From the IMG/VR virus record IMGVR_UViG_3300036832_001282, positions 1 through 57,610 of that record: a DNA stretch of 57,610 bases. One strand, 5' to 3'. This document shows, one piece after another, positions 29,472 to 57,610 of the stretch; position 1 is the stretch's first letter; each line of letters begins with the position of its first letter. Both the position numbers and the translations under genes were made by a program. A model generated the notes under the pieces. That model was not told the origin of the DNA, ran no database searches, and worked only from the letters and a program-made list of their open reading frames with translations. The DNA comes from a virus.

Positions 29472-31778
29472 CTACCACGTGATAGCGCTCGTTGTAGCAA
29501 CCATTCCAGACCGCCTAAATGACCAATTAAGAGGGAAGATCATTCGAAGCGCCAATGAATCCGTCTGGAACAGTGAGCGTTGTGGAGAAGCGACAGTACC
29601 GGGTGAGCCGCTGACAAGGTCGGCCGGTGACGTATCTTCCATATGGAGCGTGGCCTGATCAGAAATCTCGAACCGCATGGCGTCGGCCTGCATCACCACG
29701 AAGTCGGCGGCGTCCACCAGGATCACCGTCTTCGGCGGCACCGTCGCCGAGTCGATGATCGGAATGTTGTTCAGCGTGCCACGGCCGACTTCGTCCTTGA
29801 ACGGGAAGACGCCCGTGTTAGGAGCGCTGACCAACGATGCTGACAGCATGTCCGCCGGGTTCATCAACCAAGCCGGTGAGCGGATGTTGCCGTAGGTGGC
29901 AGTGACCAACGCACCGATCATGTTCTTGATGTCGCCAACCACCGCCGCAATGCCGCCACCCGCCGTTGCACCCACTGGCGTCACGCCATTGAGAATGCCA
30001 GCCGGACGAATGGTGGTCGCCGGATTGTTGTCGAGCAAAACCGAATCCAACGAGATCGCCGTATCCTCTTGGATCGCCTGCCGCAGCACGCCCTCGATCG
30101 CAGGAATGCTGTGATCCGCCATCTCACGCGTCCACGTCGTGATCACGGCCATCTTCTTCGGAATGAAGGTCTGGCTGGTGAACGCGCCCTGCCGGACCGG
30201 GATCGCCATGCCTTCACCAACGAACGATCCGGCAATCGTCGGCGTCCGCGACCGGGTCGGCAACAGGATTTTCCCGGCCTGCCCGAAACTAAGCGACGTA
30301 CCCTTGGCCGCCAGTCGCGGGAAGATGCTTTGCGGAAGCAGCAAAGCCATCATGTCGGCGTAGATTTGATGCACCAGTTCTTGTGCCCAACCCACCACCG
30401 TGGTCATGGCAGGCGCTGACGGTGCGCGCATCGTCCAGTCGAGCACCACCTTGTGCGCTTCGTCATCACCATAGATGCGAAGCCGTTCGACATCCGGCAG
30501 CGTGCCCCGGATTTTCGCCATGCCATGGCAAACACCAGCATGCACGAGATAATCGATCGGCTCCCAGTCCTTCTTCGAGTGTTTAACGATGATCGGCGCG
30601 CTGACACCCTCATTAGTTGGCGTACGATATGGCACCAGCGAACGACGAGTCGGGGCACCATTATCTTCACGAGCGGTCGCGGCCCCTCGCGTCTTTTCAT
30701 AATCGACCAATGCAACATACTGATTCTGCAGTTGCTTGATCTGCGCATTCAGCAGCGTCGACTTCTCCAAGTCAGCGTCGCTAACATTGGTGTCGTCCTG
30801 CTTGCTGAAATGCTCGTCCAGTTCTTCCAGCTTATTGGCGATCTGCTGTTGCAGATCAATAATACGTTGCGAAAGCGGAACCGTGCTCATGGCTCGGTCC
30901 TTCCCTTGACTACGAGACGTGTCGCCTTGCTTGGCAATGAAATCCCGCCGTACGATGCCGCCCTGATTGCCATGCTTGGCGAAGACGACATCCATCGTGG
31001 CCGGACTAACACCCAGCGATTTGGCAACCGCCAGGGCATTCGGGTTGGCTGGCACACTCACCAGCGACGTTTCGAGCAGTTCCTGTTTGAGATAGCGCTG
31101 ACCGGCAAAACCGCCGACGTTCAGACTTTTAAGCGGCACCGCCTCGATCGGATGAAAACCAACCGAGACCGTACGCAGGATTCCAGCATTGACCAGCTTG
31201 CGTATCTCGTCGATGCGATCGGATGTCCCTTCCGGCGCAAGCTCCAGATGCCCGCGCAACGCGCCTTTTTCCACGCGCAAATTGTGCCAGCGACCAATCG
31301 GAAAATCGCTCTTGTGATTGAACAACGCAATCGGATTGTTCTTGAACGACTCGATATCCCAACCGGCGCTGCTGATGACATCGCCCATGCGATCGACAGT
31401 CTCGTCGCTCAACACGAATTCCATACCGCTCACAGTCGCACTATGCGACTTGTGCAAGACCGATTTATGCACTGCCGCTACAGCGGCACGATTCTCCTGA
31501 TAATCGGTCCACATCACCTGACATTCGTCTTCGTCCAGATCATCGGTGCAGCGATCCATGAACTCTTCATAAGTCTCGTCGTCATCCGGCGGATCAACAT
31601 TGTCATCACCGTTGTCTTTTGCTTTTTTCGGCGGTTCGCCACCGTGCTCGGCGCGCCACATCGAAAGGCATGCCGCCACCGCCTGCTCTTGCGGCCGTTT
31701 GCCGTCGCCCATCATCTCGGGCACACACCTTGCGCTGAAATCACTTTGCGATTCACCCGGCTTTGGCTTCATCGGCAT
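29472..31778 (-). CDS. Prohead protease - scaffold - HK97 major capsid protein fusion
   Basis: 768 residues, GGAGG before the ATG. Residues about 110-255 are an S78-type (HK97 gp4-like) prohead protease with likely catalytic His155 (FNHKSDFPIGRW) and Ser205 (LRTVSVGF). Residues 297-350 are a coiled-coil delta/scaffold segment (LSQRIIDLQQQIANKLEELDEHF). Residues about 395-768 are the HK97-fold capsid (SAPAMTTVVGWAQEL, GMAIPVRQ, LDNNPATTIRPAG). An internal ATG at 30890 (Met297) is preceded by AAGGGAAGG, so a separate 472-residue scaffold-capsid product is plausible. Confidence 0.9.
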   Translation of the reverse strand: MPMKPKPGESQSDFSARCVPEMMGDGKRPQEQAVAACLSMWRAEHGGEPPKKAKDNGDDNVDPPDDDETYEEFMDRCTDDLDEDECQVMWTDYQENRAAVAAVHKSVLHKSHSATVSGMEFVLSDETVDRMGDVISSAGWDIESFKNNPIALFNHKSDFPIGRWHNLRVEKGALRGHLELAPEGTSDRIDEIRKLVNAGILRTVSVGFHPIEAVPLKSLNVGGFAGQRYLKQELLETSLVSVPANPNALAVAKSLGVSPATMDVVFAKHGNQGGIVRRDFIAKQGDTSRSQGKDRAMSTVPLSQRIIDLQQQIANKLEELDEHFSKQDDTNVSDADLEKSTLLNAQIKQLQNQYVALVDYEKTRGAATAREDNGAPTRRSLVPYRTPTNEGVSAPIIVKHSKKDWEPIDYLVHAGVCHGMAKIRGTLPDVERLRIYGDDEAHKVVLDWTMRAPSAPAMTTVVGWAQELVHQIYADMMALLLPQSIFPRLAAKGTSLSFGQAGKILLPTRSRTPTIAGSFVGEGMAIPVRQGAFTSQTFIPKKMAVITTWTREMADHSIPAIEGVLRQAIQEDTAISLDSVLLDNNPATTIRPAGILNGVTPVGATAGGGIAAVVGDIKNMIGALVTATYGNIRSPAWLMNPADMLSASLVSAPNTGVFPFKDEVGRGTLNNIPIIDSATVPPKTVILVDAADFVVMQADAMRFEISDQATLHMEDTSPADLVSGSPGTVASPQRSLFQTDSLALRMIFPLNWSFRRSGMVATTSAITW
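30888..30903 (-). promoter_or_regulatory. Internal ribosome-binding site and ATG within the protease-capsid gene
   Basis: AAGGGAAGGACCGAGCC precedes ATG at 30890-30888, exactly at the boundary between protease and coiled-coil scaffold. It would allow many capsid copies per protease, which a strict fusion would not. Confidence 0.5.
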
Positions 31779-37445: not shown

Positions 37446-38525
37446 TCACTTCCAATTTGGCGTAAGCCAACTAATACCTCTTGGATCACGTAGTGCCCAC
37501 GACACTGGCCATCGAATTTTCAACGCCAGCGAATCAGTTTGATACATCGATTTTCGCGGTCCAGCTGTCGGCACTGCTGATGGCACAGAATCCATATGCA
37601 GCGCTGCAGCAGTTGCAACTTCGACATGCGGAGCAGGATCAAGCGCGGCCACTAATGCAGCAGGTGCAATTGCGAGCATATCGCCGCCAATCGAATTTGT
37701 TCCAAGCACAACAACATTGCTGGCTTCGAAAATGAACCGCAACGCCATTGAAACAGCACGACCGGGTGAGACAACAATTAGATACGGTCCATTTTGACCA
37801 ACTGATGAAACAGCGTTAATCAACGATGTTAAATCTTCAGCAAATGCTTCAACGGAGTCAGCATTATTACTTGCTGTCAACGCAGCGATGCCGTTACGCA
37901 AACCAGCTGGTCGCGCCGCTGTTGCCGGATTGACATCGAATAACGTGTCATCGAGCGCACAACCAGCAGAACGCATCAAGGCATCGCCGATCAGCTGCTC
38001 GGCATTACTGGATTCAATCATTTCACGTGTTAGCACCGCAATTGATGCAAGCTTGAACGGCGTCAACAACGCTGGTGTTGCTGATAATTGGCGAACTGGA
38101 ATTGGATCACCTTCAGCAACAAATCCTGAATTAGCTCCTGATGCACTGAATCCTGGTGCACTGATTGAAGCACGGCCAGCAAAATCAAGTAACAATGAAC
38201 GTTTGAATACCTCGGCCGCCGCTGTCGCCGGGCCAAGACCAGCCAGCATGTCATTGACAGTTCGTTGCGCTAATTCTGCAGCCCAAGTAGATACCGTCGT
38301 CATTGCAGGCGCAGAAGCAGCGCGCTCGATCACTTCCAACGTGAGCTTGTCGCTTGGCCACATCAACGCTGCCGCTTCTTGCGGAGACATCTTGCGTACA
38401 ATGCCGACTGCTTTCGCTGTCAGCGCCCGCACGAAAGTGTTGCCTTGCGGCAGCGGCAGCGGGTTGCGCTTGAAAGCGCGACCTGAAAAAGCAGATGTCC
38501 CGATGTATTCCATCGCCTGTGCCAT
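37446..38525 (-). CDS. Second HK97-type major capsid protein (paralogue)
   Basis: 359 residues, GGAG before the ATG. It shares its architecture and motifs with the capsid part of the fusion gene: ASAPAMTTVSTWAAEL, EGDPIPVRQ, VLTREMIESSN, DVNPATAARPAGLRNG, and the end YQTDSLALKIRWPVSWALRD. It has no protease and only a short N-terminal segment. Two HK97-fold shell proteins in one phage could build mixed capsids (hexamer or penton specialisation), or this could be a decoy or older copy. The spacing to the terminase is 15 bases. Confidence 0.85.
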   Translation of the reverse strand: MAQAMEYIGTSAFSGRAFKRNPLPLPQGNTFVRALTAKAVGIVRKMSPQEAAALMWPSDKLTLEVIERAASAPAMTTVSTWAAELAQRTVNDMLAGLGPATAAAEVFKRSLLLDFAGRASISAPGFSASGANSGFVAEGDPIPVRQLSATPALLTPFKLASIAVLTREMIESSNAEQLIGDALMRSAGCALDDTLFDVNPATAARPAGLRNGIAALTASNNADSVEAFAEDLTSLINAVSSVGQNGPYLIVVSPGRAVSMALRFIFEASNVVVLGTNSIGGDMLAIAPAALVAALDPAPHVEVATAAALHMDSVPSAVPTAGPRKSMYQTDSLALKIRWPVSWALRDPRGISWLTPNWK

Positions 38526-41778: not shown

Positions 41779-42105
41779 TCACTTCGTCTGCCAGCATGGA
41801 TGCGACTTATCCACCGGCCAGCCATCTCGGCCAATCTCATTTGAGTAACCACGCTGCTCGATCACACGCTTGATCGAATCATGACATGACGCACATAATG
41901 ACTGCAATTCACCAAACTCAAATTTATGCCGATCACCTTGATGCGGCTCGACGTGGTCAACACATACAGCTGGCACCACCAAACTACGCGACTGCAAACA
42001 GATCACACACAATGGATGCTTAATCAGTTGCGCCCTGCGTCGCTTCTTCCAGCGATTCAAACCATACCACTGATTGCCTGGATTGGTGTGCTTCGCCATG
42101 TTCAT
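41779..42105 (-). CDS. HNH endonuclease
   Basis: 108 residues from ATG 42105; the frame is open upstream to a TTG at 42195, which I judge less likely. It has the compact phage HNH layout: HPLCVICLQ (first Cys pair), VDHVEPHQGD (HNH His), LQSLCASCHDS (second Cys pair). HNH enzymes beside terminase genes help DNA cleavage at packaging in HK97-like phages. Confidence 0.85.
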   Translation of the reverse strand: MNMAKHTNPGNQWYGLNRWKKRRRAQLIKHPLCVICLQSRSLVVPAVCVDHVEPHQGDRHKFEFGELQSLCASCHDSIKRVIEQRGYSNEIGRDGWPVDKSHPCWQTK

Positions 42106-42198
42106 CACTTGAAGTGAGCGAAGCGTCAGATCGCGGCGTCTGACGCCAGCCCATTTTTCCCGAGACGCAGAACCTGCACGAGAAAAATCCTGCAATGA

Positions 42199-42453
42199 TC
42201 ACGAACTGATAAATCGTGGAAGCTCGATAATCTCTCGGCAAGCAACGTCGCGATTGATGTTGGTTTCCTCGATGCGCGCTCGCATGCTGAGATGCTCGTC
42301 GACCAGCTGCATCAACTCGACTACTTGCGAATAGGCCGGATGCTCAGTCGCCACCACTCGCAGCTTGCGCGCCAGATCACGCAATGGGCTTTCATGTGTC
42401 ATGAACTGAAACTCGAAGCGCGCTGCGTAGCGCAGTCGATGCGAATTCTGCAT
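42199..42453 (-). CDS. Small helical protein, unknown
   Basis: 84 residues from ATG 42453, selected by GGGAGG nine bases upstream. Helical and charged (HESPLRDLARKLRVVATEHPAYSQVVELMQLVDEHLSMRARIEE). No family recognised. It lies between the NusG-like gene and the HNH nuclease. Confidence 0.55.
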   Translation of the reverse strand: MQNSHRLRYAARFEFQFMTHESPLRDLARKLRVVATEHPAYSQVVELMQLVDEHLSMRARIEETNINRDVACREIIELPRFISS

Positions 42454-42527
42454 CGTACTTCGCCTCCCAACCAGCGATCTATAACCTCGATTCGCCGCCT
42501 CGCGCAAGAGCCCATGGTCATAAAATC

Positions 42528-43031
42528 CTACCTCGCTTCCACGTCAGAACTGGCCAGCAGCACTGGCACTTCGCGACCCAGCAACGCCAGCAAAACCCGC
42601 GATCTCTCAGCACCGGACAGCCCATCGTAAACCCCAAGCTTGCCCGCGAACGAACCACGCTTGATGCGCACCGGATCACCTTTCAGCAAGCCTCTCGGCT
42701 TCGGAAGTTGCACCAGACCATCATCGTCCTCGCGCTTGCGAATCGCATCCATGATCTTGTTCGCCACCTGCACTGGCTTGCCATCCGACATCAACAAGCG
42801 CACCACGCCAACGCTCCAACGCACCTCCCACCAGCGATCCATGATTTCAACAAACACATAGCCGGGAAACAGCGGCACGATCTTTTTCAACCTGCCTTGC
42901 TTGATCAGGATTTTTGGTAAGTAGGTTTTGAAGCGCGCTTGTTCGAGGAAGCGCGCAGCGACTCTTTCGCGCTGCGATTCAGTTTGCACGACTGACCAAA
43001 ACGACTTGGCTGATTGTCGCAACGATGCCAT
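42528..43031 (-). CDS. NusG/RfaH-like transcription elongation or antitermination factor
   Basis: 167 residues from ATG 43031. NGN domain: SFWSVVQTESQRERVAARFLEQARFKTYLPKIL, KKIVPLFPGYVFVEIMDRWWEVRWSVGVVRLL. C-terminal KOW-like domain: LLKGDPVRIKRGSFAGKLGVYDGL...RVLLALLGREVPVLL. NusG paralogues of the RfaH type bind RNA polymerase and suppress termination in long operons. Here the gene precedes a block of more than 40 kb with internal terminators, so a role in late antitermination is likely. Its first 127 bases overlap the HNH/AP2-like gene. Confidence 0.85.
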   Translation of the reverse strand: MASLRQSAKSFWSVVQTESQRERVAARFLEQARFKTYLPKILIKQGRLKKIVPLFPGYVFVEIMDRWWEVRWSVGVVRLLMSDGKPVQVANKIMDAIRKREDDDGLVQLPKPRGLLKGDPVRIKRGSFAGKLGVYDGLSGAERSRVLLALLGREVPVLLASSDVEAR

Positions 43032-43681
43032 TGCTGTTCTTTCGCAGTCGCCCATCGACAGTTCTTAGGCTCATAATCTCCATTATTGTCAGGATAACGA
43101 TCAATGGAATGTTGCGGCGAAGGCTTCAATCCCATATCAACCAAAAAATTCTCGAAGCTGTCATTCCAACGCTTACATACTTTCACACCACGACCACCAT
43201 AATTAGAAAACTTATTTGTGCCAGGAACATTACAACGAGCCCTCATACCAAGCCACGAAGAATATTCAGAAGAAATACCAGAATCTCTAGCATGCCCATG
43301 CTTCGCGCGTTTCACAGATAATTCTTTATTCAAACAACCACATGATCCCGTATGCCCACTAGTTAAACTACCAGTACTAACTATCAAACTATTTCCACAA
43401 TCACATCTACACTTCCAACACGCTGCCTCATGCTTATCATTCTTAACACGTCGTAACACAATCAAACGCTTAAATTTTTGTCCTAACAAACTAGATGCTT
43501 TCAAACACTTTCCACAAGATTTACTTTTTCCACTGCGTAAATTCCCGCGACTAACTACTGCATCATTTCCGCAATCACAACGACACAACCAATACGCCAT
43601 TCCAGAATTTGAACTACCTTTTCGACTCAACACAAACAATCGACCAAAATGCTGTCCACACAAATCAATCAACTTGCTCAT
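42905..43681 (-). CDS. HNH/AP2-like endonuclease with two zinc-ribbon-type repeats
   Basis: 258 residues from the ATG at 43681 that overlaps the upstream stop as ATGA. Two N-terminal repeats of W.CRCDCGN...SGK/HT-SCG-C (Cys-rich, zinc-binding look), then the module EYSSWLGMRARCNVPGTNKFSNYGGRGVKVCKRWNDSFENFLVDMG and SIDRYPDNNGDYEPKNCRWATAKEQ, typical of homing-type HNH/AP2 proteins. The C-terminal 40 residues overlap the NusG-like gene in another frame. Probably a mobile, self-serving endonuclease. Confidence 0.8.
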   Translation of the reverse strand: MSKLIDLCGQHFGRLFVLSRKGSSNSGMAYWLCRCDCGNDAVVSRGNLRSGKSKSCGKCLKASSLLGQKFKRLIVLRRVKNDKHEAACWKCRCDCGNSLIVSTGSLTSGHTGSCGCLNKELSVKRAKHGHARDSGISSEYSSWLGMRARCNVPGTNKFSNYGGRGVKVCKRWNDSFENFLVDMGLKPSPQHSIDRYPDNNGDYEPKNCRWATAKEQQWHRCDNQPSRFGQSCKLNRSAKESLRASSNKRASKPTYQKS

Positions 43682-44268
43682 TTCACTTCTCCGTCTCGAT
43701 GCAACCAACACATCCTCGGATCACCACGGTAACCTGATTCAAACACAGCCCACACAAAATCCTGCGTGCCACCTCCAGGCTTATTGCCTGCCGCAATCCA
43801 CTGACCGGGCGGCATCGAAGGTCGCGGAGTTAAAAAATAAACTTTTTTCAAAGGCAAGTCACGCAGCCAATGCGCGGCGTTCAATCTCCGCGTCAGCATG
43901 ATCATCGCCACCTTGTCGGCAAACAACATCGCGTGCTCGCAAAATTCCTGTATCAGATCGAACGGCGGATTGCAGACAATCGACATCTGTTGCGGATCAC
44001 GACGCGCGAAGTGAAACATCTGCATGAAGTCTTTTCGCTCGAATGCACTATTCAACTTGTGGCGCTTGCGATTCACAATATCACTTCCACGAATCCCGTA
44101 ACCTGCCGCTTTCGCTGAACTGAGAATCGTTCCAATACCACATGCCGGGTCGTATATCGTTGAAGCAAACTCTTCAACTTCAAATAAACGTTCACTACAC
44201 CATGAAGGCTCGACGTACCAACCATCCTTGGCTTTCTCGAAAATGTGCGACTCACGACGGCGTTTCAT
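43678..44268 (-). CDS. DNA N6-adenine methyltransferase-like protein
   Basis: 196 residues from ATG 44268, overlapping the upstream gene as ATGA and preceded by GGTGAAG. SAM site STIYDPACGIGTILSSAKAAGY and catalytic motif IV IVCNPPFDLIQEF are visible, as in N6-adenine or N4-cytosine methylases. No target-recognition domain is evident. Sits next to a second methyltransferase, suggesting protection from host restriction. Confidence 0.82.
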   Translation of the reverse strand: MKRRRESHIFEKAKDGWYVEPSWCSERLFEVEEFASTIYDPACGIGTILSSAKAAGYGIRGSDIVNRKRHKLNSAFERKDFMQMFHFARRDPQQMSIVCNPPFDLIQEFCEHAMLFADKVAMIMLTRRLNAAHWLRDLPLKKVYFLTPRPSMPPGQWIAAGNKPGGGTQDFVWAVFESGYRGDPRMCWLHRDGEVK

Positions 44269-45185
44269 CACTTCACCGATTGATGCACCGGCAGGGCAAT
44301 CCAACCAACAACAGCAAACTCTTTTATAAATCGCTTAACAGCATTACCCCAATAAAACAACGCTTGACCTTGCGTCACCTCATGTGGATCAACCAACGTA
44401 GTAAAAGTCATACGACCAGTATGAAAACAAATGGCGTCGGCAGACTGCGCCGCATCAGCAAACCATTTAGTCTCAGTACAATTATTCACCAACATAATTG
44501 CAGTCTTGACGTGCTTGTTCTCAATCTCAGTCAAAAGCTTAGCAACAAACTTCGCGACCACAGTACGACCAAACGGTGGATTGAGCCAAACTCGACCACG
44601 CCAATCCTGCTTGAGCGCATCATTCTGCTTACTGAAAAACTTCGTCGCCTTGACAATCCGCTGCGCTTCCGGACACGACGCCGGATCAAGATCGATCCCG
44701 CCAAGTGTTGTACGTGCTGATTTGATAATCGACGCTGGCGTGAAAAACTCGGCAAGACCCTGTTGCCGGATCGAACCGCGTTCGAGCATCGAGACAATTT
44801 TGATCTTGCCTTTAGTAACAGTCTTGGCAAAAGCATCTGGAGCTTTGAGGTCTTTACGCCAGCGATGGGCGGTGAGATCGCCGGGATCGTTGGCTGGTAA
44901 ACCACGTTTCAGTACAGAAACTTGGTTTTTGTTGCCGCGCCCTGGTCCTGCATGTGGAACTTCAGCCAGCGCATCCCGCCAGATCACATACTCGCGCTGA
45001 CACCGGAGCTTATACTCGACCGCAGCATGGGCGCGCTCGCGATCCTGCGAGGCGATGAAGGCATCAACGAAAACCTGCATCGCCTGAAGCTCGTCAAGTT
45101 TCTCCTCCGCTGCCGCTGTCGGCATGCCCGGCAACAACGCCGGACGTTGCGGCATCACCATTGGCACCGGATCGGATTTGCTCAT
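44268..45185 (-). CDS. Phage N6-adenine methyltransferase (Dam family)
   Basis: 305 residues from ATG 45185 (AAAGG upstream). C-terminal domain matches the phage DNA N-6-adenine methyltransferase family: GLAEFFTPASIIKSARTTLGGIDLDPASCPEAQRIV, RVWLNPPFGRTVVAKFVAKL (motif IV NPPF), AIMLVNNCTETKWF and ICFHTGRMTF. The N-terminal third is a helical extension of unknown role. Overlaps the preceding gene by 92 bases. Confidence 0.88.
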   Translation of the reverse strand: MSKSDPVPMVMPQRPALLPGMPTAAAEEKLDELQAMQVFVDAFIASQDRERAHAAVEYKLRCQREYVIWRDALAEVPHAGPGRGNKNQVSVLKRGLPANDPGDLTAHRWRKDLKAPDAFAKTVTKGKIKIVSMLERGSIRQQGLAEFFTPASIIKSARTTLGGIDLDPASCPEAQRIVKATKFFSKQNDALKQDWRGRVWLNPPFGRTVVAKFVAKLLTEIENKHVKTAIMLVNNCTETKWFADAAQSADAICFHTGRMTFTTLVDPHEVTQGQALFYWGNAVKRFIKEFAVVGWIALPVHQSVK

Positions 45186-45813
45186 CGTAGCGGCCTTTGA
45201 TCCCCGCAATCTGCCCTCGCGTCAAACCAAATCTATCCCGAATCTCCACCGGAGCGAAACCCCGCTGCAGCATTTCATGTATCTGCCCAAGCATCTCAAC
45301 AGTGACTTTGACATTGACCAAATGCGAACTGATTTTTGACGTAACCCACTGCAGTTTGCCAGACCCGTCAATCAGCCAATCGCGCTTAATCCGCAAATGC
45401 GTATGCCGCTGCGTCCGCATGGTGTACTCGCTATAACCAAGCTGTTCACCGATTGCTTTCGGACTCAGACCCTCGTTGCATAAAACACGAATTCGTTCTT
45501 GATCAGCTAAATCAACTTTCTGCCGTGGCCCTTTACGTTTAGGTCCACGCTTATGCGTATGCTTATTTCGAAACTGTTGCGCCATATATTCCTGACGCAG
45601 TCTCAACAGCAACGCATTATCAGAAAAATCAGTAAAATCATAAACCGATTTATCAGGAATCTTCAGCGGATTGATCTTGTAGGTTTCCATCAGTCGCCTT
45701 GCGGCGGCTTCCGCAGCTTCGGCCTCACCGAGAGTCGAAGCTGCAGTTGCACGCCGCAAGCACTTCTGAAAACGTCGCAGATTCTCGAAAGTTTCGTTTT
45801 TAGTCGAGAACAT
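45094..45813 (-). CDS. DUF2786/helix-turn-helix protein, probable DNA-binding regulator
   Basis: 239 residues if the start is the ATG at 45813, which overlaps the upstream stop; the frame is open to 45858. The N-terminus (RRATAASTLGEAEAAEAAARRLMETYKI) matches the DUF2786 pattern. The centre is basic (HKRGPKRKGPRQK) followed by two helix-turn-helix-like segments: ERIRVLCNEGLSPKAIGEQLGYSEYTMRTQRHT and LQRGFAPVEIRDRFGLTRGQIAGIKGRY. It may regulate transcription or guide DNA packaging; target unknown. Confidence 0.6.
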   Translation of the reverse strand: MFSTKNETFENLRRFQKCLRRATAASTLGEAEAAEAAARRLMETYKINPLKIPDKSVYDFTDFSDNALLLRLRQEYMAQQFRNKHTHKRGPKRKGPRQKVDLADQERIRVLCNEGLSPKAIGEQLGYSEYTMRTQRHTHLRIKRDWLIDGSGKLQWVTSKISSHLVNVKVTVEMLGQIHEMLQRGFAPVEIRDRFGLTRGQIAGIKGRYDEQIRSGANGDAATSGVVAGHADSGSGGET

Positions 45814-46366
45814 GATTCTCATCAGCAGCTTGGCCGTTACCGGACGCAGTCGCCGCATTGTCCGAGATTAACAGCTTGTGCTGAATGTCTTCCATGATCT
45901 CACCGATCACTGATCGCGGTTTCTGCCCGCGACTCTTCCACGTCGCCATCAGCGACAACGCTGTGTTCCCGGCATCCTCGCCAGCTTCGACGATCTTACT
46001 GCCGGTGATAACCGCAAGTTGACCACGCAACTGCGCCGCCGCGTTGATAACTTTACGAGCTTTAGTCTCTTCACTCACTTCGGCAGAACGCTTTGGTCGC
46101 GGCGGCCTGATCAACTTCTTGACCAGACTATTGATCACAAGATCAACGTAATTCGAACTACGAGCGCGCTTCAACCAACCCAAGAACACACCGTTGATCT
46201 GATCCTGGGTCAACTGAGCAATAACACACTTCCCCGAACACTCCGCAACCCAAGTGTCAACCAAAGTCTTGACGACTAGGCCATCTTTGCCGATCAGATT
46301 TTTAGGGGGTGCTGGAAGCGACTTCAACACTTCATCCGGTGAACTAACAGAAGCTTCGGCAGTCAT
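45800..46366 (-). CDS. Hypothetical protein, first gene of the late block
   Basis: 188 residues, GGTGGAGG before the ATG. Helical throughout: VVKTLVDTWVAECSGKCVIAQLTQDQINGVFLGWLKRAR, VDLVINSLVKKLIRPPRPKR, ARKVINAAAQLRGQLAVITGSKIVEAG. No domain recognised. As the first gene after the 46.4-46.9 kb control region, it may be a regulator, but this is inference. Confidence 0.55.
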   Translation of the reverse strand: MTAEASVSSPDEVLKSLPAPPKNLIGKDGLVVKTLVDTWVAECSGKCVIAQLTQDQINGVFLGWLKRARSSNYVDLVINSLVKKLIRPPRPKRSAEVSEETKARKVINAAAQLRGQLAVITGSKIVEAGEDAGNTALSLMATWKSRGQKPRSVIGEIMEDIQHKLLISDNAATASGNGQAADENHVLD

Positions 46367-46521
46367 AACAAACCTCCACCGATAAGTGAGGTCGTCTTAC
46401 ACGCTAGCCAGTTAACGGCCTACGGCCCTGGTTCTGCGACGCGCCTCGCCTTGCATCCCAAATCATTTCCGCCAAGGTGTCAATCCCTTTGTTTGTTTTC
46501 ACCATCCGGCGGGTGCGCGGA

Positions 46522-46543
46522 CGTGCTCACGGACGTGGTCACG
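46522..46543. promoter_or_regulatory. Tandem CGTG-N2-CACG palindromes, possible operator
   Basis: CGTGCTCACG at 46522-46531 and CGTGGTCACG at 46534-46543, centres 12 bases apart (just over one helical turn), within a 12-base direct repeat GGACGTGSTCAC. Two phased palindromes resemble repressor-binding sites; the protein is unknown (the helix-turn-helix gene at 45094-45813 is a candidate). Confidence 0.45.
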
Positions 46544-46838
46544 AGCACCTGCGCTTCCGCCTGTCAGTGTCGGGTGTGTACGGGGGCGGATGCCTAAGCT
46601 CATAGGAATAAGGATAGCTACCTAGGGTTGTATAGGGCTCTACTGAAGGTAGTATATGCATATATAATAATAGTTATTATAGATATACCATACACACCCA
46701 TACACAGTAGTTGTAACAGTATTGAAAACATTAAGTTTTTTGTCTGTGTACTGGGGTATTCAAACTGTTAGTTAGCCATACGCAGCCGTACGCACTGTGT
46801 ATTCTATTTGTTCTTTTAGGGTGTGTATGCCCCTAGGC

Positions 46839-46869
46839 GTGTGTCTGCCTCGGCCTGACCGGCACACAC
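46839..46869. terminator. Stem-loop after the primase gene, possible terminator or regulatory hairpin
   Basis: GTGTGT (46839-46844), GCC (46847-46849), GGC (46861-46863), ACACAC (46864-46869): nine pairs with a two-base bulge. It has no long T run, so factor-independent termination is doubtful. Confidence 0.35.
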
Positions 46870-46875
46870 AAGGTT

Positions 46876-49473
46876 TCAGTCCGATTTAGGTTCGTCGGGG
46901 AGCCCGCCAGTGATCACTGTCAGCCCGTCTTTAAACGACCCGATCATTCCCCATTTTGCCGCCTCGTGCCGCCGCTGCATTTCATCCAAAAGGCGCGCTT
47001 CCTTGTGCCGATTGGCAAAGCAGTACAGCTTGGTTTGAATCCCTCCGACGCGGATGCGGCAAGGCGATCCGGCGTCGGTTTTAAGCAGCCTGACGCAGGC
47101 ATCCCAGGCGCCTTCGAATGTGCCGCGCCATTGCTGCCATGACGTGCCGCGACCGCCGCTTATGATGTTCTCGATCTCACGCTCAACCTGCACCCTGGTG
47201 AACACGAGGCCGCGCGTGTCGTCTTCCGACAGATCGATCATCTCCTGCTCGACCTGGGAATACGAACGATCTATCATTTCGGTTTTGGCGGCGCTTTTCA
47301 GCGCGAGGTAAGGATCGAACTTTGTCAGATCGCGACGCTCAAGCCAGCGCGACAGTTCGGCAATGTTGCCGTCGTCGTCGATCCACGCAGCAAATGTTTT
47401 TGCTTCTTCTGGCAGTATCTCGCGGCCGTTGTTCAGCACGCTGAACCGCCGGTCGCCTGGAGGAATCGCGATGGCGTTGGCGTGATTGGTCGCCACCATC
47501 AGCGAACTGTAGGCATAACCGTCGAACGACGGTTTGTATTTGCCCTTGAACTTATAGCGTTTCAGCACCGGATCGGCTGCGTTCTTCAGCGCTTCATAGA
47601 TTGATTTGCGCTCGCCGCGCCGATGTGCGGTCGGTGATGTCATCGCTTCGTCGATGGTGACCAGAATCGAGCCGAACCGCCAGTCGGTATAGATCGCCTG
47701 ACTGCCGTTGCCTGCGATGATGTCGAAATCCTCGGCCTGGGTGTACTCCTCGCCGAACAGCTTATAGAGCACGCGAAACAGCATGCCGCGTCCGGTGCCG
47801 TAGCGTCCTTCGCGCCTGCCGTCTTCGGTGTCGGCCACGAAGATCACCGAGATGCCGGGTATCCATGGCTTGGCTTGCTTATGCGCCAGCGCGTCATAAA
47901 ACCACTCGCGTTCGGCCTGATCGGGCAGGAAGCGTTCCATGAACGTGACGAACGGCGCGATGTCGCCAGCGCCGCTATGCACTGGCTTGCGATAACGGTT
48001 CTTGTACAGCTTGCCGCCTTCGGCATAAGTCGGGAAGGTTTTATCCGGGCACATCCGCACCCCAGCCACGCCGATCCGGTTTTCATTTACTTCCCAGATG
48101 TCAGTGGCATGCAGATAAGTGATGCCGCCGCGCGGCCCTTTTTTCTCTTCGCGCCAGCTTCGATACTCGCGTTGAAACGCCACCGGTTTGATTCGGCAGC
48201 GCTCGTCAACCGTTTCAAACAGATCGACCACCATGTCAGTGCTGACTTCATAGCCGTAGCACTGCAACAGCCAGTTATATTTTTCCTGCATCGTGGCATT
48301 GTGTGGTGGACGTGGCGGTTTGATTTCGCCGCTGTTTGAACTGGCGCGCCAGTTGGTGCCGCCTTTTGGCAGCGCGATGCCAAGTTGTTCGGCGATCTGT
48401 TTCAGCTTTGCGCCGAACGCCGATGTGTCCAGCGGCTGCAGCTCGACCAGATAATGCCGGTCGTTGGTTTTCCAGTCCTTGATCATCGGGCAGTCAAAGC
48501 GTTTCGACCAGAACACGCTGCAGCGGTCCAGCCTGTCGGTCGTCACGCCTGCCACGAATGTCGGTGACACCCGTAAGTCTGATCGGGTGAATATCAGCGT
48601 TTCAAGATCGGTGTAGCTGATTTGTTGCTCGCCTTGGTACACATCGAACCGTGTAGCTTCATCGATATCAAATACATCTTCGCCGACGCCATCGCCTTCC
48701 GCATCGGCCTCATCGATCCTGATCCAACCTTGCTGTTCCGCCCATAGCTCGAATGCCGTCAATAATTCCAGCACCTGATCGCGGGTTATTTCCGGCAGTT
48801 GCGCTAACGGCGTATTCATCAAGGTCGGAAAATCATCGGCCCATGCATAACTGGTTTCGACCGCGCCATCGCTTGCGTAGCTACGCGGCCCATGAACTGC
48901 AAACTGTCTGGAGCAGTGCCCGCCACTGGTCGGCTTGCCACCGAATGTTTCGATCTGATGATAATGCTCTGCGGTTTCGTCCGGCCGATGATATTTGCGA
49001 CTGCCAAGGCGGACGAAATCATCACCGCTCAGCCGCACGAAGATCGCCATCTTGTCGCCGCCGCCATAGCGCGTAGGTCCGCGCTTGGCCACGTCCGGCA
49101 AATGCTGTGTCAGCCAGTCCAGCATGAACGTCGTGGCAGCGGCGTCATCGATATCGAAATCGAGCGCTGCCAGACCATGCTCGATGCGGACGCCGGTCGA
49201 TTCTGCATCCGGGTAGATTTTACCCCAGCGCTTGAGCTTCTTGGCGGTGTCGCCTTTGCCGCTTGGCTCGATGTTCTTGGCGGCATAGTCCTTGAGATTC
49301 CAACCTTTCAGTACAGGAATCTTGCCGCGATCGGGAATAGGTAAATATCCACACTCGAACAATCGCATCCGTGTCTGAAACACGTCGTCGTTGTCCGCCA
49401 CGGGTTTTGACTCCGCACGCATGATCAAAGGAAGCTGGAGACTTGAGGAATCAAGAAGGCGCGAATACGCCAC
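46876..49473 (-). CDS. Primase-polymerase / replicative helicase
   Basis: 865 residues, start at GTG 49473 assumed (ATG 49422 possible; neither has a clear ribosome-binding site). N-terminal archaeo-eukaryotic-type primase-polymerase: GYLPIPDRGKIPVLKGW, metal-binding ALDFDIDD (Asp105, Asp107), HCSRQFAVHGPRSY. C-terminal helicase of the DUF5906/VirE-like type with Walker A-like GRYGTGRGML (about 555-565), SILVTIDEAMTS (about 605) and YSSLMVATNHANAIAIPPGDRRF (arginine-finger region). Synthesises primers and unwinds DNA at the fork. Adjacent to the VRR-NUC gene. Confidence 0.85.
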   Translation of the reverse strand: MAYSRLLDSSSLQLPLIMRAESKPVADNDDVFQTRMRLFECGYLPIPDRGKIPVLKGWNLKDYAAKNIEPSGKGDTAKKLKRWGKIYPDAESTGVRIEHGLAALDFDIDDAAATTFMLDWLTQHLPDVAKRGPTRYGGGDKMAIFVRLSGDDFVRLGSRKYHRPDETAEHYHQIETFGGKPTSGGHCSRQFAVHGPRSYASDGAVETSYAWADDFPTLMNTPLAQLPEITRDQVLELLTAFELWAEQQGWIRIDEADAEGDGVGEDVFDIDEATRFDVYQGEQQISYTDLETLIFTRSDLRVSPTFVAGVTTDRLDRCSVFWSKRFDCPMIKDWKTNDRHYLVELQPLDTSAFGAKLKQIAEQLGIALPKGGTNWRASSNSGEIKPPRPPHNATMQEKYNWLLQCYGYEVSTDMVVDLFETVDERCRIKPVAFQREYRSWREEKKGPRGGITYLHATDIWEVNENRIGVAGVRMCPDKTFPTYAEGGKLYKNRYRKPVHSGAGDIAPFVTFMERFLPDQAEREWFYDALAHKQAKPWIPGISVIFVADTEDGRREGRYGTGRGMLFRVLYKLFGEEYTQAEDFDIIAGNGSQAIYTDWRFGSILVTIDEAMTSPTAHRRGERKSIYEALKNAADPVLKRYKFKGKYKPSFDGYAYSSLMVATNHANAIAIPPGDRRFSVLNNGREILPEEAKTFAAWIDDDGNIAELSRWLERRDLTKFDPYLALKSAAKTEMIDRSYSQVEQEMIDLSEDDTRGLVFTRVQVEREIENIISGGRGTSWQQWRGTFEGAWDACVRLLKTDAGSPCRIRVGGIQTKLYCFANRHKEARLLDEMQRRHEAAKWGMIGSFKDGLTVITGGLPDEPKSD

Positions 49474-51836: not shown

Positions 51837-54053
51837 ATGCAGCGTCGTGCCGAAACTGGTGCCACCTTCGCGCATGACGCCATTGGATTCTTGGATTTCG
51901 AAACTGTCAGCCGCACGCAGGAACTCAAAGCGGCTGGCACCTATCGCTATGCGGTCGAGGCCGACGCTATCATTGCCGCGTTCGCCATCGGCAACGCCCC
52001 GACGCGAACGATCGCGGTGACGGACTTTCCGGCTTCATTGCGCTGGTCCGACATGCCGGAAGATTTCCGCGCTCATCATCTCAGGGTGCAACGCGGTGAA
52101 GCGGTGTGGGCGGCCTGGAATGCCGGATTCGACAAGGCGATCTGGAATTACTGCACCGACTTTCCGCCGCTTGAGCCAGAGCACATCATCGACGTGATGG
52201 CGCAGGCTGCGGCCAGCGGCTTGGCACCTGATCTAAAACATGCAGCAAAACAGTGTGGAGCCGTAGCTAAACTTGAAACCGGCAGCGATCTGATAAAATT
52301 GTTTTGCATTCCGCTTGAACTTCGCAAGAGTGATATTCGCAAGCGCTATGGCGATGCCATAGCAACGCCGTTAACGCATCCTAACGAGTGGGCGCAATTC
52401 GTTGTCTATGCTGCCGCCGATATCGAGGCTATGCGCGGCGTGTTCATGCGCACCCGGCAATTGCCATGGCAGGAGTGGCAGCACTACTGGGCGAGCGAAC
52501 ACATCAACGAACGCGGTGCCACTATCGATCTTAAAATGGTCGCGCACGCCGCCAAGCTGGCGGAAGAGGACAAGTATCGATCCAAGAAAGAATTGCCATA
52601 TCTTACTGCAGGCGCGGTCAAGACCGTGGATCAAGTCAAGTGCATGACCGAGTGGCTGCTAAAACATCTGCCGGTAAACGGCCGTGATATTTTGATCAAA
52701 CGCGTACCTGAGATTGATGAAGAAACTGGTGTTGAGACGCGTCCGGCTAAAATGAGCCTGACGCGTAGACAAGTCGAGAAATTGATTGTGCTATTGCAGG
52801 CGCAACCAAATTTAGCGTCGGCGGAAGTGTTGCGTGTGCTGCAGCTGCGGTTGTACGGCGGAAGTAAAACTCCTGCTAAATTCAATCGTGTGCTTTGGCA
52901 ACACGTCGATGGCGTATTGTACGGTCAGTATGTTTTCAACGGCGCAGCGCATACCGGGCGCTATTCTTCGAAAGGCACACAAATTCACAACTTAGCTCGT
53001 GACGTGTTGGACAACGAGCCCGATCTGATCGACGCCGTGCTGAACGAATGCGATTATGATACGTTGCAACAACTCGGCACTAACGATCCGGTTGCGCGCA
53101 AGCTGGCATTGCTGATTCGCCCGATATTCGTTCCGCAACCAGATCATGTATTTGTTTGGAGCGACTGGTCGCAGATTGAAGCTCGCGTGCTGCCGTGGCT
53201 GGCTGGTGACGATACTCGCGCCATGGCGCGACTGGAGATTTTCAGCGATGTCGATAACGATCCGAGTTTGCCTGATCTTTACACTAGAACCGCCAGCGAC
53301 ATTTCCGGTTTGCCAATAGAACAAGTAACAAAACCAATTCGTCAGCGCGGTAAGGTTGCCGAATTGGCCTTGGGTTTTGGCGGCGGTGTCAATGCGCTAC
53401 TAAACATGGGCGTTAACTATGGCTTGCACCTAGAACCTGAAGAAGCCAAGCTGATCGTAGCGCGCTGGCGTGAGGCCAACCGATGGGCGGCCGACTTTTC
53501 CAGTGCGTTGTGGAACGCCATGCGCGAGGCGCATCGTTTTCAAAAGCAGTTTGTTCCTGCCGGTCGCGTTGGTTTTATCTTTCTCGGAGATTATCTTGGC
53601 GGCTCGATGTTGATGCGATTGCCGTCAGGGCGGCTGCTGACATACCGGGGCTTACGCTGGGAACAACTCGACGTGCTTGATGACGACGACCAGCCAACTG
53701 GCGAAAAAACTCTGGAGTTGACCTATGGACGTGGCCACGCCCGTGTCAAATTATGGGCCGGAATTTTAGTTGAAAATGCCACTCAAGCCTGCGCAGCAGA
53801 TTTTTTGCGCGGCACTTTGGTGCGGCTGATCGAGCATAAGTTCGATGTGCGCCTGCACACGCACGACGAGATCGTGTTGGAAGCTCGCGCGGCCGACGCC
53901 CGACAAGTCGCCGCCAAATTGCGCGCGATCATGCAACAGGGTTTTGACTGGTCGGAAGGTTTGCCACTGATGAGCGAGGAGACCATCGCCTACGGCTACA
54001 CCAAGCACGCTGGCAGTTACTGGCAAGAAGAATTAGTTGGTTCAGTCGGATGA
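51837..54053 (+). CDS. DNA polymerase, family A, with 3'-5' exonuclease
   Basis: 738 residues. Exonuclease: LDFETVS (Asp20, Glu22), WNAGFDKAIWNY, YAAADIEAM. Polymerase: motif A SDWSQIEARVLPWLAGD (Asp443), motif B RQRGKVAELALGFGGG (Arg502, Lys506), motif C HTHDEIVLE (His676, Asp677, Glu678). All catalytic residues are present. It replicates the phage genome. Four bases separate it from the upstream stop, so coupling is likely despite a weak ribosome-binding site; the SNF2 gene overlaps its end as ATGA. Confidence 0.95.
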   Translation: MQRRAETGATFAHDAIGFLDFETVSRTQELKAAGTYRYAVEADAIIAAFAIGNAPTRTIAVTDFPASLRWSDMPEDFRAHHLRVQRGEAVWAAWNAGFDKAIWNYCTDFPPLEPEHIIDVMAQAAASGLAPDLKHAAKQCGAVAKLETGSDLIKLFCIPLELRKSDIRKRYGDAIATPLTHPNEWAQFVVYAAADIEAMRGVFMRTRQLPWQEWQHYWASEHINERGATIDLKMVAHAAKLAEEDKYRSKKELPYLTAGAVKTVDQVKCMTEWLLKHLPVNGRDILIKRVPEIDEETGVETRPAKMSLTRRQVEKLIVLLQAQPNLASAEVLRVLQLRLYGGSKTPAKFNRVLWQHVDGVLYGQYVFNGAAHTGRYSSKGTQIHNLARDVLDNEPDLIDAVLNECDYDTLQQLGTNDPVARKLALLIRPIFVPQPDHVFVWSDWSQIEARVLPWLAGDDTRAMARLEIFSDVDNDPSLPDLYTRTASDISGLPIEQVTKPIRQRGKVAELALGFGGGVNALLNMGVNYGLHLEPEEAKLIVARWREANRWAADFSSALWNAMREAHRFQKQFVPAGRVGFIFLGDYLGGSMLMRLPSGRLLTYRGLRWEQLDVLDDDDQPTGEKTLELTYGRGHARVKLWAGILVENATQACAADFLRGTLVRLIEHKFDVRLHTHDEIVLEARAADARQVAAKLRAIMQQGFDWSEGLPLMSEETIAYGYTKHAGSYWQEELVGSVG

Positions 54054-55447
54054 GACAAAAATCTGAGCTTCGTTCCGGCCAGCAGCATATCATCGACGCG
54101 TTGTACCAGAACAACGAGATGATCTGCGCCTTGCGCCCAGGCGGCGGCAAGACCATCGCCGCCTTGACCGCCATCGAGGAGCTTATCTGCCACGGTGAGA
54201 TCAGGCACGCTCTGGTGACCGCGCCGAAACGCGTGGCCAGGATCGTGTGGCCGGATGAATTGGAGACCTGGGAGAACACGAGCCGCTTGCGCTGCGCCGT
54301 GCTCAGCGCCGGTCCGGCCGAACGCAGCGTGCTGCTGCACGACGCGCCAAACCGCGATCTGACCATCTTCGGCCATGACATCATCGAGTGGCTCATCATG
54401 CAGATCGACAAACTGCCGTCCGATCATCCGTTGTTCGATTTGCTGGTGATCGATGAAATTTCCCGGTTTCGCAATCCGCGAGGCAAGCGCTACAAATTAT
54501 TATGCAAGCATATTCACCGCTGGCGCATGGTGTGGGGCTTGTCCGGCACCTTGCGGCCGTCGAGCGCCATGGATTTGTTCGGCCCGGTGCGCTTGGTATC
54601 ACGCGGCAAGCTCTGGGGCAGGAGCTTCTATCAATGGCAGAAGGAAAGATTTTTCCCAACTGATTACAACGGTTATAACTGGGAGCCGAAACCGGGCGCG
54701 GAAGATCGTATCAATGCCGAAATCGTCCCGTGGCTGGTCACCGCCGAGATACCGCAACTACCCGAACCGACGATCGTGCTTGACCGGCTCGAACTGCCGG
54801 AAGCAGCACGGCGCGAGTATAACCGGATGGAGCGCCGGTTGATTGCCGATATAGGCCAGAACGAGACCGTGATTGCCGACAGTCGCGCCATCGCGATCGG
54901 CAAACTGAGCCAGATGAGCAACGGTTTTATTTATTCTAGTGATAATTCAAAAACCGTACACGCGCTGCACGACGCCAAGCGTGATTGGCTGCGTGACCTG
55001 ATCGAGACTTCAACGTCACCGATGCTGCTGATCTACGAATTTCGTGAAGACCTGTCGATGCTGCGTGAGTTGCTTGGCGACAGCCTGCCGTATCTCGGCG
55101 CTGGTGTTTCCGACAAGCGCGCCGAACAGCACGTCAAGCGCTGGAACGAAGGCCGCCTGCCGTTCATGGCCTTGCACCCTGCCAGCGCCGCCCACGGCTT
55201 GAATCTGCAGCATGGCGGCGCGGACATGACATGGATCGCACCGACGTGGAATTCTGAATTATGGGAGCAAACTATTGCGCGGCTGCACCGCTCCGGTCAG
55301 ACTCGGCAAGTGGTGATTCGCGTCGGCATCGCCATCGGCACCATCGATGAAATGAAGCTCGATCGTGTGCATCTGAAGCTGTCGGCACAACAAAGCTTCG
55401 AGCGCTACGTCAGTCATCGTACTTTGAATCTGGCATCTGTAGACTGA
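54050..55447 (+). CDS. SNF2-family helicase
   Basis: 465 residues. Helicase motifs: I RPGGGKT (29-35), II VIDEISR (DEIS, 135-138), III GLSGT (163-167), and a late QTIARLHRSGQTRQV (about 405-420). The DEIS rather than DEAH box and the HRSGQ motif are typical of phage SNF2-type translocases found with VRR-NUC nucleases. Start overlaps the polymerase stop. Probable roles: replication-fork or recombination remodelling. The last gene of the plus operon, followed by a terminator. Confidence 0.93.
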   Translation: MRQKSELRSGQQHIIDALYQNNEMICALRPGGGKTIAALTAIEELICHGEIRHALVTAPKRVARIVWPDELETWENTSRLRCAVLSAGPAERSVLLHDAPNRDLTIFGHDIIEWLIMQIDKLPSDHPLFDLLVIDEISRFRNPRGKRYKLLCKHIHRWRMVWGLSGTLRPSSAMDLFGPVRLVSRGKLWGRSFYQWQKERFFPTDYNGYNWEPKPGAEDRINAEIVPWLVTAEIPQLPEPTIVLDRLELPEAARREYNRMERRLIADIGQNETVIADSRAIAIGKLSQMSNGFIYSSDNSKTVHALHDAKRDWLRDLIETSTSPMLLIYEFREDLSMLRELLGDSLPYLGAGVSDKRAEQHVKRWNEGRLPFMALHPASAAHGLNLQHGGADMTWIAPTWNSELWEQTIARLHRSGQTRQVVIRVGIAIGTIDEMKLDRVHLKLSAQQSFERYVSHRTLNLASVD

Positions 55448-55480
55448 AAGGATCGTCAGTCGCGACACACCTCTGAAGTA

Positions 55481-55512
55481 AAAATGCCCGCACCTTGCGA
55501 TGCGAGCATTTT
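55481..55512 (+). terminator. Terminator after the SNF2 gene
   Basis: AAAATGC (55481-55487) pairs with GCATTTT (55506-55512); inside, CGCA/TGCG adds four pairs after one mismatch; loop of eight bases. Followed by TTTTCATTT. The run of A before and T after would also act on transcripts coming from the other side. Confidence 0.82.
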
Positions 55513-57385
55513 CATTTACCTGCCTTGCGAGGCTGAACCGCTCCGTTCCTTGCCCGTCCGTCCGTGCCTATCCGGTCCCCGCCTGCCGTGCTTAACCGCG
55601 CCGATCACGACCGGAATCACACCGCGCCATAATCAGCCACGTCGTATCATGCCTGCCGGATACCGCCATACACCGCCGCTTCCCGCCATTCGCACCTTTC
55701 AGGCCGAAACGAACCGTGCCTGCGTCACCGTGCCCGTCCGCTCCTGTCCCAGCCGCTCCAATGACCGCCGTGCCTGCTTTGCCGTGCCTAGCCAATCCTA
55801 GCCTGATCGATCCGAAACGAACCGTGCCTGCATTGCCAATCCGGGGCCGTCCTATCCTACCACTCCAGGCCGGTTCCCGCCTCGCCTGCACTGCCATGTC
55901 ATACCGCGCCGATCACGACCGGGAAGCGCCTATCCATTCCGCACCTGCCAATCCTAGCCGTGCCTACTCGCACCCAATCGTTTACGAGCCACGCCTGCCA
56001 GTCCGTACTCTGCCGAACCCATCTGCAACGAACCATAACCCGCCAAACAAACCATGTCCGAACGAGCCTGAACGATCCGTGCCTGCCGGTCCTTGCCAGA
56101 TCGCAACTGAACGAACACCGACGAGCCCCACCGCTCGCACCGCGCCATGTCCGCGCCTGCCACACCACGCCCAGCCATGCCTGTCCGTGCCGGTCCCAAT
56201 TTAGCCAATTGCGCCATGCCTGCGCTGCCGCGCCAACCATGCCGGTCTAGGCCCTGCCGCGCCATTCCCATGCTTCCGCTGCCGTCCGCGCCCTGCCGCG
56301 TCGCTCCACGTCCCGCCGATTCCGTTTCTGCCGTACCTGCTTCGCCTTGCCTTGCCTGCTTTGCTTAGCCCTTCCGTGCCTAGGCTATCCTAGACCACAT
56401 GCGCCGATCCCTACTGTCCGTGCCTGCTTTGCTCATCCGCAACGAGCCTAACTAGACCTGTCACAGCCACATCCTTCCGCACCCGTCCGTGCCTGCCAGT
56501 CCACGCCATGCTGCTCCGCGCCCTGCCCGCGTTCCGCCGTGCCTATCCTTGCCTGTCGTCCACGCCCAGCCCTTCCATGTCTATCCAATCATGTCACGCC
56601 GCGCCTGCCTTGCCGATCCGAATCGCTTTGGGATGCGCCGGACCAAATCACACCATCCATGCCTGCCGAACACCGCCCAACACTGCCCAGTTCTTCCCTT
56701 GCCATTCCAATGACAGCCGCGCCTGCTTTGCCGTGCCAAACCTAGCCGAGACGAAATCAGGCCGACCGCTCCCGTCCACGCACGGCCTTACCCTGCCGCG
56801 CCTGCTTACCCCGTGAAGTAACAAATCGTGCCTGCATTACTTCGCCAAGCCGATCCTGATCATGCCACTCCGGTCTGCGCGATCCGCGCCTTGCCTGCTT
56901 CGCCGATCCTTGCCGGTTCGTGCCAGTCCTAACCGATCCGCGCCTGCCGTGCCCTTCCTTGCCTAATCGCTCCGTATTCTGCCAATGCAACCGGGTAAAC
57001 ACCGCAACCCGCCTGCCGTGTCTAGCTGAGCCCTGCCCAATCGATCCTTTCCTTTCCATTCCGCGCCTGCTTCGCCGATCCGGTCCACGCCTTGCTCAGC
57101 CCGTCCGTCCATTCCATGCCTGCTTCGCCTTATTGTGCCGGTCCCCGTCGAGCCGTGCCTTTCCTTACCGTGCCGCACCTATTCGCAGCCGCTTCACGCC
57201 TGCCTTGCCACGCCCTGCCCGTCCTTATCGGTCCAATCCTTGCCTGCTTCACCTTGCCTTGCCTGCCATCCTTGCACCGCCGCGCCGCTCCTTAACTGTA
57301 CGCGCCTGCTAATGCCTTGCCGACCCCTGCTCTGCCACAACGATCACTAATGTGCCGTGCCTGCATTGCCTTGCAATGCCGTTCG

Positions 57386-57488
57386 CGCCGGTCCGCGTCT
57401 TTCACCACCTCGCCTGCACGGCCATGCACGGCCATGTCTCGTCACGCCGGTCCGCGTCTTTCACCACCTCGCCTGCACGGCCATGCAC
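57386..57488. repeat. Tandem 59-bp duplication inside the periodic array
   Basis: 44 identical bases at 57386-57429 and 57445-57488, offset 59, beginning CGCCGGTCCGCGTC. The 59 step is one base off a multiple of five, so it produces a phase slip. It is a recent local duplication, showing that the array grows or changes by duplication. Confidence 0.85.
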
Positions 57489-57564
57489 TGCCATGCACTG
57501 ACGAACCGGAGCGGGCCGGACCATTTCGGCCGGACCATGCCTAGCCTGCTTCGCCTTTCCACGC

Positions 57565-57610
57565 CTAAACTGTCCGAATCGAATTGAACCGTTTCAGCCA
57601 ATCCTCGCCT
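57565..57610 (-). CDS. C-terminal end of the lysin if the window is circular
   Basis: Continuing the frame of the gene at 1-506 from position 57610 gives Q-GEDWLKRFNSIRTV and a TAG stop at 57567-57565. The 46 bases also fit the five-base rhythm of the array, so the last 15 residues may have been captured from the array. The joining of the two ends is inferred. Confidence 0.5.
   Translation of the reverse strand, partial: GEDWLKRFNSIRTV

What the first reader, a model, noticed from the sequence alone, without database searches (positions are those of the whole stretch)
55513..57610. A 2.1-kb five-base-periodic array of unknown type between convergent phage operons
Sequence shows: CC dinucleotides recur every five bases on the plus strand over some 420 positions, with three-base spacers of varied sequence and only occasional one-base slips (examples: 57153 to 57178, six in a row; 57203 to 57243, eight of nine; 55538 to 55582 with one slip). 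It is not a simple tandem repeat because the spacers differ, and it is not coding, because the period is five, not three. No named family that I know (CRISPR, iterons, GOLLD/ROOL RNAs, retron, DGR) has this form. Inference: selection acts on the spacing of CC/GG and not on the spacer, pointing to a structural role in DNA or RNA, such as bending (two units are about one helical turn), packaging, origin function, or a long structured RNA.
Basis: partly seen in the sequence, partly recalled or inferred. Interest (0 to 1): 0.92.

Follow-up and report, generated by a model that had tools for sequence, protein, structure and literature searches.

The report
Phage VIPR guide-RNA array
The odd five-base pattern at the end of this phage contig is very probably a long string of guide RNAs for VIPR, a CRISPR-like phage-against-phage weapon first described in a 2026 preprint; here it is a long example whose protein gene lies off the end of the contig or is absent.

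Summary
CC recurs at lag 5 (155 pairs; 57 +/- 7 in exact dinucleotide shuffles, maximum 73) over 55513-57610, with regular -1 slips. The strand and the inferred function need changing. Read on the MINUS strand, the array is (GG-H-N-N)n, punctuated by GCAGGC at 31 places, mostly 43-88 nt apart. The same grammar, (GGCNN)n with GGCAGGC punctuation, occurs in some 100 diverse phage contigs. In 82 of 120 of them it accompanies one gene family (phrog_4652), against 0 of 62 control contigs. That family matches the solved structure "SUSP1 Vipr protein" (E 1.5e-36) and folds like the CRISPR RAMP proteins Csm3/Cas7. A 2026 preprint (PMC13142463) describes this as VIPR: vrRNAs of 9-16 GGY/NN repeats guide Vipr to DNA, the NNs pairing with a 1-nt skip. 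A tail-sheath relative (G026) has vipr, small genes, a 2.6-kb GCAGGC-punctuated array and a terminator, mirroring the window. The contig ends inside the array, so its own vipr was not seen. The third repeat base is looser (C/U/A) than published GGY, and no target was found. Verdict: a new, long member of a very recently described kind, not an unknown class.

The parts
55513..57610 (-). VIPR-type vrRNA array, about 425 pentamer-like units in 33 guide-like segments, running off the contig end
   Evidence: Period-5 statistics; segmentation in RNA sense: G 86%, G 78%, then C 51 / A 26 / U 21 / G 1, then two variable bases; 33 segments, most of 9-15 units
55581..57549 (-). 31 punctuation sites GCAGGC (GCCTGC on +), span from first to last site; each carries a 4-base unit that shifts the register
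   Evidence: Positions and spacings; the same word punctuates (GGCNN)n arrays of other phages (slip base T on the C strand in 154 of 166, 98 of 111 intervals = 4 mod 5) and the array of relative G026 (34 sites)
57386..57488 (-). Recent tandem duplication: identical 44-base stretches 57386-57429 and 57445-57488, spacing 59, one punctuated unit long
55479..55514 (.). 16-bp hairpin with U/T tracts on both strands: probable shared terminator of the helicase operon (+) and of the array transcript (-)
   Evidence: Fold -22.8 kcal/mol, z -5.2; terminator-like hits on both strands at 55488-55506
54050..55447 (+). Phage DNA helicase gene, last gene of the replication operon facing the array
   Evidence: phrog_62, E 3e-98

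Best explanation
The array is a vrRNA locus of a phage VIPR system, transcribed on the minus strand from beyond 57610 towards the hairpin at 55479-55514. Each stretch between GCAGGC words is one guide of usually 9-15 repeats. The GG-(C/U/A) triplets are docking points for a RAMP-fold Vipr protein that polymerises on the RNA. The NN pairs jointly specify a double-stranded DNA target read with one skipped base per step, probably coding sequence of competing phages, satellites or prophages, which is silenced. Shown here: the lattice, the punctuation, the two-sided terminator hairpin, and the tight genomic linkage of such arrays to Vipr genes in other phages, including a relative of this one. Inferred: transcription, processing at GCAGGC, a Vipr gene just outside the record, and targeting.
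For: Same repeat grammar in some 100 viral contigs with near-random NN. 82 of 120 array loci carry exactly one phrog_4652 gene, 0 of 62 control contigs, p about 2e-22. Array and gene agree in strand in 81 of 83 loci, median distance 20 nt. The profile of that family hits PDB 36pp 'SUSP1 Vipr protein', E 1.5e-36; its AlphaFold2 model (pLDDT 96.7) hits Csm3/Cas7 structures. The preprint describes exactly this RNA and protein pair. Tail-sheath relative G026 (63% identity) has vipr (E 3e-47), then small genes, a 2.6-kb array with 34 GCAGGC words, a hairpin-like inverted repeat and further genes. Named phages show the same: Felixounavirus VSe11 and cyanophage Cy-LDV1. The window's NN dinucleotides fit codon positions 1-2 (antisense) best of six registers, as a wobble-skipping code predicts (r 0.65; permutation p about 0.01).
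Against: No Vipr in the 57.6 kb that is present. The third repeat base is A in 26%, so the code is GGH rather than GGY; the preprint allows 'a related consensus' without details that I could read. No target: decoded guides do no better with a 1-nt skip than with 0, 2 or 3, or than shuffled guides, in 2.8 Mb, and three collection scans gave nothing beyond chance. Relatives of the replication module (L410, L411) have no array after the helicase. No expression data. The codon test is exploratory, one of six registers, with no correction made.
Confidence: 0.88

Rival explanations
1. Orphan or trans-acting vrRNA array: this phage carries guides without its own vipr and relies on the Vipr of a co-infecting or resident element, or the array is a decaying remnant or decoy. 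(A sub-case of the VIPR reading, so its confidence overlaps with the best explanation.)
For: No vipr in the record; looser consensus; several array-bearing relatives G009, G012, G034, G038 also lack a vipr in their fragments. The preprint reports satellites that encode their own vrRNAs.
Against: The record stops inside the array, where a vipr would be expected by the G026 layout. The recent exact duplication of one unit and >75% conservation of the GG lattice argue against decay.
Confidence: 0.2
2. A Rho-utilisation-like or other C-rich transcription-termination element read on the plus strand after the helicase gene.
For: C 42%, G 21% on the plus strand; short arrays in L069 and L019 lie after hairpins in transcript sense.
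Against: Rho needs C-rich, unstructured RNA of under about 100 nt, not a strict 5-base lattice over 2 kb nor a fixed punctuation word (own knowledge). A strong hairpin terminator already precedes it. In 81 of 83 linked loci the arrays are G-rich in the sense of the neighbouring gene.
Confidence: 0.03
3. Structural DNA: G-quadruplex or i-motif chain (GG every 5 bases), bending, packaging or origin element.
Against: Does not explain the biased third base, the GCAGGC words or the linkage with Vipr; the mean period of 4.9 runs away from the helical repeat.
Confidence: 0.02
4. Degenerate microsatellite or assembly artefact.
For: It lies at a contig end, as does the array of G009.
Against: A decaying satellite would lose fixed and variable bases alike, yet NN is near random while GG is kept; the same grammar recurs in independent contigs and in complete, named phages.
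Confidence: 0.02

Closest known systems
VIPR systems (Viral Interference Programmable Repeat; bioRxiv 2026.04.26.720920, PMC13142463)
   Same: Tandem pentanucleotides with a fixed GG-containing triplet and two hypervariable bases; guide length of about 9-16 repeats; phage-borne; in relatives linked to the Vipr RAMP protein and small neighbouring genes.
   Different: Third base C/U/A rather than C/U; more than 30 guide-like segments in one array with a GCAGGC punctuation word (perhaps the 'staggered arrays' of their fig. S18, which I could not read); vipr not seen in the record; no targets identified.
Array of window relative G026 (IMGVR_UViG_3300036791_000423)
   Same: GCAGGC-punctuated 2.6-kb pentamer array that ends at a hairpin-like inverted repeat.
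   Different: Fixed triplet is mostly RGC (A 47 / G 28 at the first base) rather than GGH; vipr and small genes present upstream.
CRISPR arrays with class 1 RAMP effectors (Csm3/Cas7)
   Same: Works like it: array of guides, RAMP-fold protein, programmed nucleic-acid recognition.
   Different: No long direct repeats or discrete spacers; fixed and variable bases alternate every five bases.

Membership tests
VIPR | vrRNA of tandem GGY/NN pentamers with conserved triplet and hypervariable NN | tested here: inconclusive
   GG 86/78% and NN near random, but third base C 51, U 21, A 26, G 1: GGH, close to but looser than GGY; 'a related consensus' is allowed by the preprint
VIPR | 9-16 repeats per guide | tested here: met
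   Segments between GCAGGC words mostly 9-15 units (spacings), with outliers of 3-23
VIPR | Adjacent vipr (RAMP homologue) gene | tested here: inconclusive
   None in the 57.6 kb, but the record ends inside the array; present beside the matching array of relative G026 and in 82 of 120 array loci
VIPR | vrRNA encoded on the same strand as vipr | not testable with these tools
   81 of 83 in other phages; the window has no vipr to compare
VIPR | Invariable structured 3' tail | tested here: inconclusive
   One terminator-like hairpin at the 3' end of the whole array; a repeated tail between units was not searched for by covariation
VIPR | Targets match NN with a 1-nt skip | tested here: inconclusive
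   No excess over controls in 2.8 Mb nor in three exact scans; NN usage fits codon positions 1-2
VIPR | Expressed vrRNA that co-purifies with Vipr | not testable with these tools
   No RNA data or bench work available
VIPR | Carried mainly by viruses and proviruses | tested here: met
   Virus record with terminase, portal, sheath and replication genes
CRISPR array | Identical direct repeats of about 25-40 bp separated by unique spacers | tested here: not met
   No such repeats in the array; the tandem-repeat scan finds only short 10-base hits there
Rho utilisation site | Short C-rich, G-poor unstructured RNA tract without a fixed lattice | tested here: not met
   Strict 5-base lattice over 2 kb with punctuation

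The most novel reading that the evidence does not exclude
The window and its relatives hold a distinct, long-array branch of VIPR: more than 30 guides per phage, punctuated by GCAGGC as a processing or loading signal, with the fixed triplet drifting between lineages (GGH here, RGC in G026, GCG/CGC in G006) and growth by duplication of single punctuated units, i.e. a phage-borne guide archive that approaches a CRISPR array in size.
Probability: 0.3. Interest if true: 0.75.

Novelty: new member of a known kind. Interest (0 to 1): 0.55.

Why it matters
VIPR is a months-old class of RNA-guided system proposed to predate CRISPR. This array shows that pentamer guide archives can be over 2 kb long in uncultured phages, that the 'fixed' triplet varies between relatives, and that standard BLAST filtering hides them: with DUST masking on, a test array found 0 of the 107 array loci found without it. 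A simple lattice scan plus phrog_4652 would recover many more.

Tried and rejected
(BLAST of arrays against phages and plasmids) found nothing, but a control showed that DUST masks such arrays, so they mean nothing. The helicase query found no viral relatives. Rfam found no RNA family in the array (one sub-threshold hit on the terminator; none in G026), so there is no sign of a hammerhead-type array. Bacterial genome hits are mostly low-entropy microsatellites. An exact search for the contig end gave no continuation. Target searches with decoded guides: no excess; one search gave 59 hits whose extensions are about as expected by chance; three hits with poor extension; none. Relatives of the polymerase (L410, L411) carry neither array nor Vipr. 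Structural-DNA, Rho and microsatellite readings were rejected as stated. TRAP-like (NAG-NN) ring binding was considered before the Vipr link was found.

Full report
OBSERVATION. In 55513-57610, CC pairs at lags 5, 10 and 15 number 155, 143 and 119, against 57 +/- 7 in 500 exact dinucleotide shuffles, none of which reached 90. No 300-base block elsewhere in the 57.6-kb record passes the same period-5 power threshold. Segmentation gives 367 units of five bases, 53 of four and 8 of six. The four-base units are not noise: many sit in the word GCCTGC, found 31 times at spacings mostly of 43-88 bases. Near the right end a 44-base stretch is duplicated exactly with a spacing of 59, the length of one punctuated unit.

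THE RECORD. The tool calls it a virus record. It has terminase, portal, major head protein, tail sheath and collagen-like fibre genes on the minus strand, and an exonuclease, nucleotidyltransferase, polymerase and helicase operon on the plus strand that ends at 55447. A 16-bp hairpin at 55479-55514 has T tracts on both strands. The record ends inside the array.

THE SAME GRAMMAR ELSEWHERE. Several phages with related tail sheaths carry perfect (GCCNN)n arrays. In these arrays NN is nearly random (entropy typically 3-3.8 of 4 bits in the long ones), and the register slips are GCC-T-GCC in 154 of 166 cases, with 98 of 111 intervals equal to 4 modulo 5. Hits in bacterial genomes are mostly low-entropy satellites. 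BLAST's DUST filter masks the arrays, which explains why they look unique to a homology search.

THE LINKED PROTEIN. The gene nearest the array is usually one family of about 200 residues. It is present exactly once in 82 of 120 array loci, absent from 62 control contigs (Fisher p about 2e-22), and lies at a median distance of 20 nt on the strand that reads the array as (GGCNN)n in 81 of 83 cases. Pfam and NCBIfam know nothing convincing of it; all 64 aligned members hit phrog_4652, function unknown. A profile search of the PDB gives 36pp, 'SUSP1 Vipr protein', E 1.5e-36. The AlphaFold2 model (pLDDT 96.7) matches Csm3 and other Cas7-type CRISPR backbone proteins, probability 1.0, E 1e-5, TM about 0.4-0.5. 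[quoted passage not shown]) describes VIPR: vrRNAs of 9-16 YNNGG repeats bound by Vipr, an ancestral RAMP; the NN pairs recognise dsDNA with one skipped base; seven types, some with staggered arrays. Positive controls seen here: Felixounavirus VSe11 (YNNGG repeats after vipr) and cyanophage Cy-LDV1 (GGCNN with GGCAGGC words).

IS THE WINDOW A MEMBER? In RNA sense (minus strand) the window reads G 86%, G 78%, then C 51 / A 26 / U 21 / G 1, then two variable bases, in 33 guide-like segments mostly of 9-15 units. No Vipr is encoded in the record. But sheath relative G026 has vipr (E 3e-47), small genes, then a 2.6-kb array of mostly (RGCNN) with 34 GCAGGC words and a hairpin-like inverted repeat at its end. 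The window matches this layout from the hairpin to the truncation point, so a vipr beyond 57610 is the natural prediction (inference). Relatives of the replication module lack the array, so the locus looks like an accessory that comes and goes.

FUNCTION. By analogy with the preprint, each punctuated segment is one guide; the triplets hold Vipr subunits and the NN pairs read DNA. Decoded guides gave no target in 2.8 Mb of fetched sequence, with no preference for the 1-nt skip, and none in exact scans of IMG/VR. One indirect sign is positive: the NN dinucleotides resemble codon positions 1-2 in antisense better than the five other registers (r 0.65; association beyond composition p about 0.01), as expected if guides copy coding targets and skip the wobble base. 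This was one of six registers tested and should be treated as a lead.

VERDICT. Real, strongly non-random, and explained with high probability as a VIPR vrRNA array. It is a new member of a kind published months before this analysis. The length, the GCAGGC punctuation and the drifting triplet (GGH, RGC, and GCG/CGC in G006) may mark a variant, but I could not compare them with the preprint's supplementary types.

Noticed in passing
L343 (G006), about 2080-2370 and 1200-1480: A sheath relative has pentamer arrays on both sides of a vipr-like gene whose fixed triplet reads GCG (or CGC on the vipr strand) rather than GGC, suggesting that the docking triplet varies between lineages.
   Followed up: partly
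L069 1075-1170; L019 14440-14525: Short perfect GCCNN arrays (10-20 units) in relatives lie directly after hairpins and have the opposite orientation, relative to neighbouring genes, from that of most arrays; possible single-guide loci or decoys.
   Followed up: partly
All (GCCNN)n loci: DUST low-complexity masking hides these arrays from default BLAST (0 loci found with the filter, 107 without).
   Followed up: yes
window 46366-46876: AT-rich intergenic stretch beside the primase-like gene with repeated CATACACAC / CATACGCA words; possible origin or promoter region.
   Followed up: no
window 29472-31778 and 37446-38525: Two separate minus-strand ORFs both match the same major head protein family (phrog_617).
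   Followed up: no
window 41779-45209: Cluster of two HNH endonuclease, one antiterminator-like and two DNA methyltransferase ORFs near the terminase genes.
   Followed up: no
L107, L129, L153 and other array loci: A second family of unknown function (phrog_15946 for the L107 member) recurs next to vipr and the arrays; perhaps one of the vap accessory genes. The small gene after vipr in G026 (L342 2366-2809) looks similar by eye, untested.
   Followed up: partly
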